A stretch of 54,008 bases of DNA from Tepidiphilus sp. J10 (lineage in GTDB: Bacteria; Pseudomonadota; Gammaproteobacteria; Burkholderiales; Thiobacillaceae): contig CAMDHJ010000006.1 of NCBI GenBank assembly GCA_945897865.1, positions 1 through 54,008 on the forward strand, read 5' to 3'. Shown piece by piece: positions 3,045 to 35,822 of the stretch. Below the pieces are notes generated by a model. That model saw nothing but the letters and a program-made list of their open reading frames with translations, ran no database searches and was not told where the DNA came from. How positions within the stretch are numbered: position 1 is the stretch's first letter; every line of letters begins with the position of its first letter. Both the position numbers and the translations under genes were made by a program.

Positions 3045-3770
3045 ATGACCCAGCTCGCGTTAGTGATCGACCTCAACGTCTGCGTCGGCTGTCATGCCTG
3101 CGTGACCAGTTGCAAGCAGTGGAATACCTCCGGAGAAGCTGGCCCGCTGTTTGACGACAACCCGTATGGCAAAGACCCGACCGGCACTTTCTTCAACCGG
3201 GTGCAGACCTATGAAGTTGGCAGTTTCCCGAATACCGAGACGCTGCATTTCCCGAAGAGCTGCCTGCATTGCGAAGACCCGCCGTGCGTGCCGGTGTGCC
3301 CGACCGGCGCCAGCTACAAGCGCAAGGAAGACGGCATCGTGCTGGTCGATTACGACAAGTGTATCGGCTGCAAATACTGCTCCTGGGCCTGCCCATACGG
3401 CGCGCGCGAACTCGACGAGAAGCAGCAGGTGATGAAGAAATGCACGTTGTGCGTTGACCGCATCTACGACATGAGCATCCCGGAAGACCGCCGCAAACCG
3501 GCCTGCGTGATTTCCTGCCCGACCAGCGCGCGCTTGTTCGGCGATGTGCATGACCCGGAATCCGACGTTTCCCTGGCGATCCGCGAATCCGGCGGCTACC
3601 AGTTGATGCCGGAATGGGGCACCAAACCAGCCAACCATTACCTGCCGCGCCGCAAGACCAAGCTGCGCATCCACGCCGACGAGCTGGTGCGCGCCGACAA
3701 CCCGTTGAGCAAGGAAGACATCAAACATGAAACCAGCAAGGAATCGTCGCTGGATGATTGGCTGATGTAA
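3045..3770 (+). CDS. soeB: Sulfite dehydrogenase iron-sulfur subunit SoeB
   Basis: Ferredoxin-like electron-transfer subunit of 241 residues with four cysteine clusters typical of DmsB/PsrB/SoeB: CVGCHACVTSC (C13-C23), CLHCEDPPCVPVCP, CIGCKYCSWACP and a last CTLC...CVISCP set. These would hold four [4Fe-4S] clusters carrying electrons from the SoeA molybdenum site to the membrane subunit SoeC. There is no signal peptide, consistent with a cytoplasm-facing complex. The ATG at 3045 has GGAG 8 nt upstream. It follows soeA after a gap filled by a large hairpin and precedes soeC. Confidence 0.88.
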   Translation: MTQLALVIDLNVCVGCHACVTSCKQWNTSGEAGPLFDDNPYGKDPTGTFFNRVQTYEVGSFPNTETLHFPKSCLHCEDPPCVPVCPTGASYKRKEDGIVLVDYDKCIGCKYCSWACPYGARELDEKQQVMKKCTLCVDRIYDMSIPEDRRKPACVISCPTSARLFGDVHDPESDVSLAIRESGGYQLMPEWGTKPANHYLPRRKTKLRIHADELVRADNPLSKEDIKHETSKESSLDDWLM

Positions 3771-3778
3771 GAGGGGTG

Positions 3779-3848
3779 CATGGTTCAAGGGGCAAGGTTC
3801 AAGTAACCCCATGAACCATGCCCCATGAACCTTGAACCTTGAACCTTG
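3779..3848. repeat. Heptamer palindromic repeat element A (soeB-soeC)
   Basis: Three consecutive 7-bp units TGAACCT lie at 3826-3846. The left arm (3779-3804) carries the inverted forms GGTTCAAG twice and GGGGCAAG; the right arm also has ATGAACC and ATGCCCC variants. Read on the minus strand, the right arm is a string of heptamers AAGGTTC, AAGGTTC, ATGGGGC, ATGGTTC; the left arm on the plus strand reads ATGGTTC, AAGGGGC, AAGGTTC. The short core is around 3805. The element fills the soeB-soeC gap. It shares its design, not its sequence, with elements near 32500 and 35750. Confidence 0.8.
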
Positions 3849-3869
3849 TAACTTGACCCTGGATTCCCT

Positions 3870-4841
3870 ATGCATCCCGCGTTTTCCGTCATCTTCCTGA
3901 CCACCCTGCTCGGCGTCGGCCAGGGCCTGTTTCTGGCGCTGTTTTCCAGCCAGGCCTACAGCGTCGTCGATGTGTTGCCGGCGCAGTCCGGCAACTTCTA
4001 TGCGCTTGGCGCGTTCATCGCGCTGATCTTCCTGATCGGCGGTCTGGTCGCCTCCGTGTTCCACCTCGGTCACCCGGAACGGGCCTGGCGAGCCGCAGCG
4101 ATGTGGCGCACCTCCTGGCTGTCGCGCGAAGTCATCGCGTTGCCGATCACCATGGCCGTCATCGCGATCTACGCGCTGGTCAACTGGCTGGGCATCGACG
4201 CCGACCTTTACGGCCTCGGCATCCCGAATCAAGTCGCGCTCAGCGTCGGCGCGTTCGGTGTCGTCGCCACCATCGCGCTATTCGTCTGCACCGCGATGAT
4301 CTACGCCGCGATCAAATTTCTGCAGGAATGGGCCAGTCCGCTCACCGTGGTGAACTACTTCCTGCTCGGCACCGCCTCCGGCTTTGGTTTTGCCACTGCC
4401 TATGCCGCCATCGCTGCGCCCGAACTGGCGCAGTTCTACGGCGGCTGGGCGATCACACTGACCATAGCCAGCCTGCTCACCCGAGCGGCCTCCTTGTTCC
4501 GCAACGCCCGCATCAAGCAGAAATCCAGCGTGCAAACCGCCATCGGCGTACGCCACAACAAGGTCCGCCAGGGCAGCATGGGCATGATGGGCGGCTCCTA
4601 CAACACGCGTGAATACTTCCACGGCCGCAGCGTCGCCTTCCTCAAATCGGTGAAATGGATCTTCCTGGTGCTGGTGTTTCCGATTCCGCTCCTGCTGCTG
4701 TGGCTCGGTCTGGCGCAAGCGAACGCTAACCTGTTGATGCTGGCTTTCGGCGTTCAATACGTTGGCTTGCTGTTCGAACGCTGGTTCTTCTTCGCCCAGG
4801 CGAATCATCCGCAGAATTTGTATTACCAGGTGGTGGGCTGA
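3870..4841 (+). CDS. soeC: Sulfite dehydrogenase membrane anchor SoeC (DmsC-like)
   Basis: Polytopic membrane protein of 323 residues with about eight hydrophobic spans, matching the DmsC-type anchor used by SoeABC rather than the longer NrfD type. A conserved-looking loop VFHLGHPERAWRA follows the second span; DmsC proteins have a similar HLG.P.RA loop near the quinone site. It would anchor SoeAB to the inner face of the membrane and reduce quinone. It is third in the soe run, separated from soeB by a 99-bp gap holding a repeat element. The ATG at 3870 opens directly into the first span; no strong Shine-Dalgarno is visible. Confidence 0.85.
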   Translation: MHPAFSVIFLTTLLGVGQGLFLALFSSQAYSVVDVLPAQSGNFYALGAFIALIFLIGGLVASVFHLGHPERAWRAAAMWRTSWLSREVIALPITMAVIAIYALVNWLGIDADLYGLGIPNQVALSVGAFGVVATIALFVCTAMIYAAIKFLQEWASPLTVVNYFLLGTASGFGFATAYAAIAAPELAQFYGGWAITLTIASLLTRAASLFRNARIKQKSSVQTAIGVRHNKVRQGSMGMMGGSYNTREYFHGRSVAFLKSVKWIFLVLVFPIPLLLLWLGLAQANANLLMLAFGVQYVGLLFERWFFFAQANHPQNLYYQVVG

Positions 4842-32498: not shown

Positions 32499-32625
32499 TG
32501 TGTGAAATGTGAAACGAGACTTGCCGCTGCGCGGCTCAGGTGAAACGTGAACACCCCCACGCCAAACCTTTCACGTTTCACGTTTCACGTTTCACCAGCG
32601 GCGCAGCTGCATCACCTTTCACACA
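32499..32625. repeat. Heptamer palindromic repeat element B (pycB-maf)
   Basis: Four consecutive 7-bp units TTTCACG lie at 32569-32596 (last base C in the final unit). The left arm has the inverted sequence GGTGAAACGTGAA (32539-32551) and GTGAAATGTGAAAC (32502-32515). Outside these the arms continue to match: GCTGCGC on the left, GCGCAGC on the right, and GTGTGAAA at the left end against TTTCACAC at the right end. The core is CACCCCCACGCC. It fills the gap between pycB and maf. Confidence 0.82.
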
Positions 32626-32632
32626 ACACCCC

Positions 32633-33229
32633 ATGCACCTCGTTCTCGCCTCCACCTCCCCTTACCGCCGCGAGCTGCTCGCACGGCTGGGCGTCCCATT
32701 CGACGTCGCTGCGCCGGATGTCGATGAAACACCGCTGACCGGAGAATCGCCGGATGAGACCGCGCAACGCTTGTCGGTATTGAAAGCGCAAGCCGTAGCG
32801 GTGAACTTCCCCGATGCACTGATCATCGGCTCCGATCAGGTCGCGCTGCTGGAAGGCGAACAACTCGGCAAACCAGGCAACTTCGACAATGCCTTTGCGC
32901 AACTCAAACGCATGCGCGGCAAGGCGCTGGAATTCCACACCGCGCTGACCCTGCTCAACGCCAGAACCGGCCGCACGCAAACTGCCAACGTGACGGTGCG
33001 CTTGGTCATGCGCGAATACAGTGACGCCCAGATCGCCGCCTACCTGAACAAGGACCAGCCCTACAACTGCTGTGGCAGCGCCAAGAGCGAGTCGCTTGGC
33101 ATCGCCTTGATCGCGCGTTTCGAAACCGAGGATCCGAATGCGCTGGTCGGCCTGCCGCTGATCAAACTGACTGAAATGCTGGCCAACGAAGGTCTGGACG
33201 TATTGACGTGGCCGGCATCCTCTACCTGA
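32633..33229 (+). CDS. Maf family nucleotide pyrophosphatase (YceF-like)
   Basis: 198 residues. Maf proteins hydrolyse modified or canonical nucleotides; the YceF subgroup prefers 7-methyl-GTP. Signature LVLASTSPYRRELLARLG, then FDVAAPDVDET, IIGSDQVALLEGE and CCGSAKSESLGIAL. The start is the ATG at 32633; a longer reading from 32540 would translate the repeat element upstream. YceF is often encoded near yceD-rpmF, which are about 3.5 kb away here. The 3-prime end overlaps the methyltransferase by 22 bp. Confidence 0.88.
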   Translation: MHLVLASTSPYRRELLARLGVPFDVAAPDVDETPLTGESPDETAQRLSVLKAQAVAVNFPDALIIGSDQVALLEGEQLGKPGNFDNAFAQLKRMRGKALEFHTALTLLNARTGRTQTANVTVRLVMREYSDAQIAAYLNKDQPYNCCGSAKSESLGIALIARFETEDPNALVGLPLIKLTEMLANEGLDVLTWPASST

Positions 33230-35743: not shown

Positions 35744-35744
35744 G

Positions 35745-35820
35745 GCGAGTGGAGAGTGGCGGGTGGCAAGTGGCGTCCGAATTCTACTTGCAACTTGCCC
35801 CCTGCCCCATGCCCCCCCTG
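35745..35820. repeat. Heptamer palindromic repeat element C (cysM-ugd)
   Basis: On the plus strand the left arm reads as successive 7-bp units GAGTGGA, GAGTGGC, GGGTGGC, AAGTGGC. After a core TCCGAATTCT the right arm reads ACTTGCA, ACTTGCC, CCCTGCC, CCATGCC, CCCCCTG. Reverse complementing the right arm gives units with AAG, ATG or AGG followed by the same GC-rich tail (GGCAAGT, GGCATGG, GGCAGGG). Period is exactly seven throughout. It occupies the whole gap between cysM and ugd. Confidence 0.8.
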
Positions 35821-35822
35821 AA

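What the first reader, a model, noticed from the sequence alone, without database searches (positions are those of the whole stretch)
3779..3848. Heptamer palindromic repeat element A, first of a three-member design class
Seven-base units (AAGGTTC, ATGGTTC, ATGGGGC, AAGGGGC) run on one arm and in inverted form on the other. Two other gaps in this window (32499-32625 and 35745-35820) share the design with different base words: exact period 7, variable bases clustered at the same place in each unit, inverted arms, short unique core, always between genes. Convergent architecture without sequence identity suggests a mechanism that builds heptamer arrays (slippage or a templating activity), rather than one dispersed element. 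Heptamer tandem repeats called STRRs are known in cyanobacteria; I know of no named counterpart here.
Basis: partly seen in the sequence, partly recalled or inferred. Interest (0 to 1): 0.72.

Follow-up and report, generated by a model that had tools for sequence, protein, structure and literature searches.

The report
Seven-base palindrome arrays between genes
The spot is one copy of a real, fast-changing kind of bacterial DNA repeat, built of seven-base words running towards each other between neighbouring genes; similar repeats are known, but here different words stand in the same gap in related species, and in most arrays compared each word keeps a fixed core beside free letters.

Summary
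A's word has 70 matches at 28 places in this genome (reversed control 0). Nineteen of 31 arrays examined there have an inverted partner (2 of 60 random positions). The same gaps in sister species show whole-unit gain and loss, empty gaps, and two gaps where another word stands in its place. Between species core letters changed at 3 of 93 sites and free letters at 23 of 82; element C alone does not show this. Facing free letters do not pair beyond chance. Slippage is supported, but the words are also dispersed families. Best reading: dispersed intergenic heptad palindromes whose arms change by whole-heptamer slippage and whose core is kept because each heptamer is recognised by a factor not identified. 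Against: arrays are sparse in unselected stretches (1 in 200 kb here) and 12 of 31 lack a second arm by the test. Closest in print: inverted GGGNATC heptamers of Xanthomonas, TAACTGA repeats. New variant of a known kind.

The parts
3779..3803 (+). Element A, 5' arm: CATGGTT CAAGGGG CAAGGTT CAAG (core CAWGG + 2 free)
3804..3808 (+). Element A, loop TAACC
3809..3857 (+). Element A, 3' arm: seven CCWTGNN-type units, inverted copy of the core
3858..3864 (+). CCTGGAT, heptamer in the Shine-Dalgarno region of dmsC, in register with the arm
3045..3770 (+). dmsB-like 4Fe-4S subunit gene upstream of A
   Evidence: Fer4_11; the name dmsB is inferred from context
3870..4841 (+). dmsC-like anchor subunit gene downstream of A
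   Evidence: PF04976 DmsC
32502..32551 (+). Element B, 5' side: GTGAAAT GTGAAAC, GC-rich block about 32520-32539, GTGAAAC GTGAA
32569..32622 (+). Element B, 3' side: TTTCAC units (5 in the gap), GC-rich block between; maf start at 32633
35744..35774 (-). Element C, arm next to the ATG of the PALP-family gene: GGCGAGT-type units (+ strand reading)
35775..35785 (.). Element C, core GTCCGAATTCT, unchanged in G021
35786..35822 (-). Element C, other arm ACTTGCA ACTTGCC CCCTGCC CCATGCC, up to the stop of the UDP-sugar dehydrogenase gene

Best explanation
A is one copy of a dispersed class of intergenic heptad palindromes: two head-to-head arrays of a seven-base unit (fixed core of 3-5 bases, the rest free) around a short loop, often filling the gap from the stop of one gene to the start of the next. 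SHOWN: arms gain and lose whole heptamers, each arm on its own; the whole element is present, absent or of another word in the same gap of sister species; in A-type and one other family the core is kept between species while free letters change. INFERRED: length change is by replication slippage; new copies reach new gaps by an unknown spreading step and are tolerated because they sit between genes or fold out; the core is kept because every heptamer is one site for a sequence-specific factor that reads the unit in both orientations. I lean slightly to reading as duplex DNA rather than as an RNA stem, because facing free letters do not pair beyond chance and one-armed arrays exist. The factor is not identified.
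For: Genome-wide: 70 matches, 28 places, control 0; CAWGGNN x3 in 13 of 23 genus genomes, 0 to 105 matches each, 329 in all, control 2. Inverted partner in 19 of 31 own arrays vs 2 of 60 random 50-nt positions, mostly coding (Fisher p 1e-9). None of the 31 own arrays lies inside a gene by a home-made gene caller. Orthologous gaps: A one unit longer in G003; B has a run of 15 TTTCACN units in G006, 2 in G021, an A-type palindrome in G003 and no array in G013; C has 7 perfect units in G021, and only 4 and 5 nt between the genes in G006 and G013; a second word switch at the L168 gap. Core vs free changes: 1/81 vs 22/73 in six arms; with C's arm 3/93 vs 23/82, p 3e-6; also leaving out L051, whose G003 copy was found through the pattern, 3/77 vs 20/70, p 5e-5. 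G185: core 1.5-2.0 bits per position, free positions 0.56-0.60; facing free pairs complementary in 15 of 55, shuffles 17.2.
Against: Element C's arm taken alone goes the other way: core 2 of 12, free 1 of 9 against G021. The core/free test rests on seven arms in four gaps and three species pairs; the core was named from the same families, units were paired so as to minimise differences, and B was not scored in it. The G185 information values come from a finder that allowed one core mismatch per unit, which favours intact cores. Several words live in one genome, which would need several factors or a loose one. No factor was found; the one family tried (PF07764) is uninformative, as its control rang nowhere. 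Twelve of 31 own arrays show no second arm, at least four of the 19 'partners' have low scores (L013, L027, L048, L178), and element C misses the threshold (0.05). No boundary duplication or mobilising gene was seen; none was searched for systematically. In G185 arrays are not enriched between co-directional genes (18 of 31 vs 136 of 217, p 0.69). Unselected stretches give few arrays (own 1 in 200 kb, family 0 in 97 kb, order 1 in 332 kb).
Confidence: 0.42

Rival explanations
1. RNA stem-loop between cistrons: the palindrome is transcribed, folds out, and sets mRNA processing or stability, or keeps ribosome signals close when DNA is inserted between stop and start.
For: RNA folds: z -3.9, -8.3, -1.7 for A, B, C; -2.7 to -11.0 for 7 of 8 further stretches (the eighth, L191:470-580, was misplaced and mostly coding, z +2.0). 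25 of 29 classifiable own arrays lie between co-directional genes vs 63 of 96 gaps (p 0.04). Element C sits between an AAGGA near the upstream stop and the ATG, and the two genes are 4-5 nt apart in G006 and G013 (AAGGA as the ribosome site is my reading).
Against: Facing free dinucleotides do not pair beyond chance (15 of 55 vs 17.2). Arrays without a detected second arm (12 of 31). No orientation bias in G185. Stability alone does not explain a fixed core beside free letters.
Confidence: 0.28
2. Mutational by-product: heptamer slippage plus chance spread, with no function; the period is set by the polymerase.
For: Perfect arrays without a second arm; a seed of about 2.5 units in G006 against 8 units at L058a; a homogenised 7-unit arm in G021 at C; for the CAAG word period 7 gives 428 matches and period 8 gives 28. 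Rehm et al. relay a polymerase-footprint idea for heptamers (PMC4692102, discussion). Element C's changes do not spare the core.
Against: Core kept while free letters change in the other arms compared; inverted partner in 19 of 31; the same word at many gaps.
Confidence: 0.22
3. The arrays grow from the Shine-Dalgarno leader of the downstream gene.
For: In 14 heptad gaps before dmsC the SD heptamer matches the unit 7 nt upstream at 3.0 of 7 letters, against 0.9-1.8 at other lags; 45 non-heptad gaps show 1.4-1.8 at lags 4-12 (SD taken loosely, and the upstream unit partly lies in the stretch used to pick the gaps).
Against: Only one gene family tested; B and C abut the start codon with no SD at that side; 6 of the 31 own arrays are convergent, divergent or unclassified.
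Confidence: 0.05
4. Chance simple repeats or assembly artefact.
For: The window's genome is a draft of 247 contigs, 86% complete; sparse in unselected stretches.
Against: 70 vs 0 matches; the same gaps carry arrays in other genomes; G185 is a single 3.2 Mb contig with 241 matches.
Confidence: 0.02

Closest known systems
GGGNATC / GGGGA(C/T)T heptameric repeats of Xanthomonas and Nostoc (Rehm et al. 2015, PMC4692102; abstract and sections 3, 10, 14, 16 read)
   Same: Period 7; positions 1-4 and 6 conserved and the others free; mostly intergenic; 70 (Xcc) and 75 (Xac) cases as inverted pairs; close to gene ends; 83% in the same gene context between two species, with length change.
   Different: Other words, and no four G-tracts in one arm of A; several words per genome; the same gap carries another word or is empty in sister species; core against free change measured.
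TAACTGA direct repeats of marine Beggiatoaceae (MacGregor 2015, PMC4679880; abstract and sections 7, 13 read)
   Same: Heptamers between genes, mostly pointing to a start codon and often ending 1 nt before it, mostly without an SD, as in B and C.
   Different: Direct repeats (1 inverted case in 170 sets); one word.
parS heptads WATCACW of plasmid pSM19035, bound by the ribbon-helix-helix protein omega/ParB (PMC9499535; passages read)
   Same: Contiguous 7-bp sites, usable in direct or inverted order.
   Different: Six plasmid sites at promoters, one word; no long palindrome described in the passages; no homologue shown here.
REP / BIME palindromes (search listings and starts of abstracts only; defining features recalled)
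   Same: Dispersed intergenic palindromes.
   Different: Here arms are tandem heptamers of changing number; REP tags were not looked for.
STRR repeats of cyanobacteria (search listing only; heptanucleotides of Calothrix as cited in PMC4692102)
   Same: Tandem heptanucleotides.
   Different: Head-to-head arms not known to me there (recalled, not searched).

Membership tests
GGGNATC heptameric repeats (Xanthomonas/Nostoc) | unit GGGANTN or GGGGAYT | tested here: not met
   units are CAWGGNN, GTGAANN, GGCRAGT, read by eye
GGGNATC heptameric repeats (Xanthomonas/Nostoc) | G-quadruplex potential: four G-tracts per strand within one array | tested here: inconclusive
   by eye only: A has two runs of GGGG on its plus strand and C three runs on its minus strand, fewer than four in one arm; no structure test was run
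GGGNATC heptameric repeats (Xanthomonas/Nostoc) | period 7, intergenic, part of them as inverted pairs | tested here: met
TAACTGA repeats | word TAACTGA in direct repeats | tested here: not met
   no such array in the three elements; arms are inverted
omega/ParB parS heptads | 7-bp sites in direct or inverted order, at least 2 contiguous | tested here: met
   (architecture only; no binding shown)
omega/ParB parS heptads | word WATCACW | tested here: not met
   B's TTTCACG shares TCAC only
omega/ParB parS heptads | omega (PF07764) encoded in the genome | tested here: inconclusive
   0 of 4 genomes, but the 14 control genomes also gave none
REP/BIME | 20-40 bp palindrome with conserved tetranucleotide tag and linked tyrosine transposase | not tested
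   definition partly from abstract starts, partly recalled; no transposase search was run
Known structured RNA (Rfam 15) | match above gathering score | tested here: not met
   0 matches in 19 sources, 108215 bases
Intrinsic terminator | GC-rich stem followed by T run at the element | tested here: not met
   A: 2 sites in 3600-4000, both outside the element; B: none; C: one 6-pair site on the + strand, antisense to both genes, shuffles mean 0.3

The most novel reading that the evidence does not exclude
A genome-wide code of head-to-head seven-base sites read by a dedicated, word-specific factor (a chromosomal counterpart of the omega/parS heptads), with whole-word replacement at the same gap when the factor's specificity changes between sister species.
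Probability: 0.14. Interest if true: 0.85.

Novelty: new variant of a known kind. Interest (0 to 1): 0.55.

Why it matters
An excess of heptameric repeats in bacterial intergenic DNA is noted in print, with no known role (PMC4692102, discussion). Here the same gap in sister species holds the repeat, an empty gap, or the same design in another word, and in most arms compared the unit splits into a kept core and free letters. That makes the question testable: measure core constraint genome-wide, and fish for the factor with two words that replace each other.

Tried and rejected
Rejected: chance; a known RNA family; intrinsic terminators at A and B; hairpin-templated correction that keeps both arms as exact copies (facing free letters no better than shuffles; arms grow separately); a longer 3' arm as a rule (by eye, no consistent pattern in the G185 arm counts).

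Inconclusive: stop codons in all three frames of the sense strand in 13 of 25 aligned arrays against 6 of 25 on the antisense strand (shuffles 5.3 are a poor null for a periodic sequence); omega repressor family; growth from the SD. Fixed phase of arm ends in G185 has no null. A loop resemblance (AACCCC before the second arm in several CAAG-type elements) and an AGT/ACT anchor in many words were seen by eye only. For CAAGNNN the tool's control (word reversed) also hit heptads (497 matches against 428), so it is no null; the period-8 word (28 matches, its control 32) is the better one. A look into PMC4060949 for heptamer passages found none.

Mended on re-checking: G021's C arm has 7 full units, not 8 as in my notes; G006's B run is 15 units; L058a has 8 units. 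Adding C's arm moved core/free from 1/81 and 22/73 to 3/93 and 23/82; I lowered the best explanation from 0.45 to 0.42 and the novel case from 0.15 to 0.14 for it, and moved two rivals up by 0.01 and 0.02. The first count of arm ends swallowed partial units and was redone. One search was an empty script.

Selection to bear in mind: 10 of the 20 stretches hold known word hits, so the spectrum is enriched; the own set is the other 10 (the left-out C8 stretch, L047, gave no array). The 31 own arrays come mostly from loci fetched by word searches. Of the 20 G185 stretches, 12 are contiguous and not picked for hits, 8 hold listed hits; G185 itself was picked as the richest genome. In one search, 17 orthologous comparisons were tried; 6 were weak at a flank (G013 and G006 at L052a; G021, G003 and G013 at L058b; G003 at L169) and are not used.

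Full report
What is there. Element A fills the gap between a dmsB-like and a dmsC-like gene. Its 5' arm is CATGGTT CAAGGGG CAAGGTT CAAG, its loop TAACC, its 3' arm seven CCWTGNN-type units. The next heptamer, CCTGGAT, is in register and lies in the dmsC Shine-Dalgarno region. Elements B (pyruvate-carboxylase-like gene to maf) and C (UDP-sugar dehydrogenase gene to a PALP-family gene, minus strand) have the same design with the words GTGAANN and GGCRAGT; B is interrupted by GC-rich blocks. RNA folds give z -3.9, -8.3 and -1.7.

More than chance. GGTTCAAGGTTCAA with up to one mismatch has 70 matches, at 28 places by my count of the list, against 0 for the reversed word; GTGAAACGTGAAAC has 9 against 0; C's word has 1 against 2. 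In 410 kb of own sequence, enriched because 10 of the 20 fetched stretches hold known hits, lag 7 gives 15 arrays and no other lag from 4 to 11 more than 1; lag 12 gives 11 and lag 24 gives 10, of which 3 and 0 outside called ORFs. In 200 kb of own stretches not picked for hits lag 7 gives 1 array; lags 9, 10, 12 give 2, 2, 10. Samples of relatives are also thin at lag 7: genus 4 in 180 kb (one of them not heptad-like by eye), family 0 in 97 kb, order 1 in 332 kb, class 3 in 313 kb, of which I would call one a heptad array. So the class is real but sparse in most genomes, and the window is a rich spot.

Context. Of 31 distinct own arrays (mostly from loci fetched by word), none lies inside a gene by a home-made gene caller; 25 of 29 classifiable ones lie between co-directional genes, against 63 of 96 gaps of 40 nt or more (p 0.04). 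Nineteen of 31 have an inverted partner, against 2 of 60 random 50-nt positions; at least four of the 19 have low scores, and element C misses the threshold at 0.05. Several of the arrays without a partner are perfect repeats (L022, L032, L058, L171, for example).

Same gap, other species. The window's genus includes contigs titled 'Tepidiphilus sp. J10' (G003, L088) and 'Hydrogenophilales bacterium 28-61-23' (G006, L089). In the A gap G003 has the same element one unit longer in the 3' arm; other relatives hold non-heptad palindromes or heptad palindromes in other words. Over 89 dmsC loci, 65 gaps are 40 nt or longer and 14 are heptad-like; asking for another lag from 4 to 12 instead gives 0 to 5 gaps. 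In the B gap G021 has fewer units, G006 a run of 15, G003 a CAWGG-type palindrome, and G013 no array. In the C gap G021 has 7 perfect units, and in G006 and G013 the genes are 4 and 5 nt apart. At L168 the window's genome has the CAWGG word and G021 the GTGAAAC word. At L052b G013 has a non-heptad palindrome and G006 and G021 next to nothing; at L052a G003 and G021 have unrelated sequence. At L058a G006 has a seed of about 2.5 units where the window's genome has 8.

Core and free letters. In six orthologous arms (three gaps) the core changed at 1 of 81 sites and the free letters at 22 of 73. Adding C's arm against G021, which alone goes the other way (core 2 of 12, free 1 of 9), gives 3 of 93 and 23 of 82 (p 3e-6); also leaving out L051, whose G003 copy was found through the pattern, gives 3 of 77 and 20 of 70 (p 5e-5). 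The core was named from the same families, units were paired so as to minimise differences, and B was not scored. Of 143 genomes drawn across the class, own included, CAAGNNN x4 matches in 13 (428 matches) and the period-8 version in 7 (28 matches) (sums by hand); the reversed word at period 7 gives 497, itself in heptads. G185, the richest for CAAG, is one 3.2 Mb contig with 241 matches. In 400 kb of it, 19 CAAGT palindromes were found; core positions have 1.5-2.0 bits and the free pair 0.56-0.60, with a finder that favours intact cores. Facing free pairs are complementary in 15 of 55 cases, shuffles 17.2, sd 3.0. Arms tend to end in one phase: 3 or 4 core letters kept in the outer slot in 16 of 22 left and 13 of 18 right ends, 4 letters on the loop side in 12 of 22 and 14 of 18; no null was made. 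Of 36 G185 arrays 5 fell inside called genes; of the other 31, 18 are between co-directional genes against 136 of 217 gaps, no enrichment; in those 18 the median distance is 1 nt from the upstream stop and 11.5 nt to the start.

How it most likely works. Shown: whole-unit length change, independent arms, presence or absence, word replacement, core constraint on a small set with C as an exception. Inferred: slippage as the cause of length change; an unknown spreading step; recognition of every heptamer in both orientations as the cause of core constraint. A duplex-DNA reading is slightly favoured over an RNA stem because free letters do not pair across the arms beyond chance and arrays without a second arm exist. 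The pSM19035 omega/parS system shows that contiguous 7-bp sites in direct or inverted order can be read this way (PMC9499535, passages); no homologue was shown here, and the one test was uninformative.

Novelty. Seven searches of the held library listed the Xanthomonas/Nostoc GGGNATC heptamers with inverted pairs (PMC4692102) and the TAACTGA repeats (PMC4679880); I saw in those listings (capped at 10 to 40 rows) no paper on head-to-head heptad arrays with word replacement at the same gap. Subscription papers are largely missing from that library. Hence: new variant of a known kind.

Noticed in passing
L061-L082 and L088-L167, dmsB-dmsC gap: The same gap holds many unrelated palindromic elements in different species (for example CCCTCTCCC, AAATCCCCCC, CGTAGGTTGGG, GTAGCCCGGAT and TCATTCCGGC types), so it looks like a recurrent landing site.
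   Followed up: partly
window about 32520-32539 and L005, L007, L009, L183, L198, L201: GTGAANN heptads are interleaved with or close to GC-rich hairpin blocks (TGCGGCTGCGCCGCTG type); a similar GCGCTGCGCGC block sits in loops of some G185 elements.
   Followed up: partly
L058 5139-5219 and L252: The upstream gene's last codons and stop codon appear to lie inside the array; the sister species has only the seed of it.
   Followed up: partly
dmsC gaps L061, L088, L101, L116, L147, L154: The arm runs in register into the Shine-Dalgarno heptamer (mean 3.0 of 7 matches at lag 7 over 14 gaps).
   Followed up: partly
G144 and G184 stretches L327-L330, L335-L337: Other heptad words in the same class of bacteria: CCCTTCA, CCGTGTT, AACTGCC, ATCTGCC.
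   Followed up: no
many loci: Many of the words, read on one strand, hold AGT (or ACT on the other); seen by eye only, not tested against chance.
   Followed up: no
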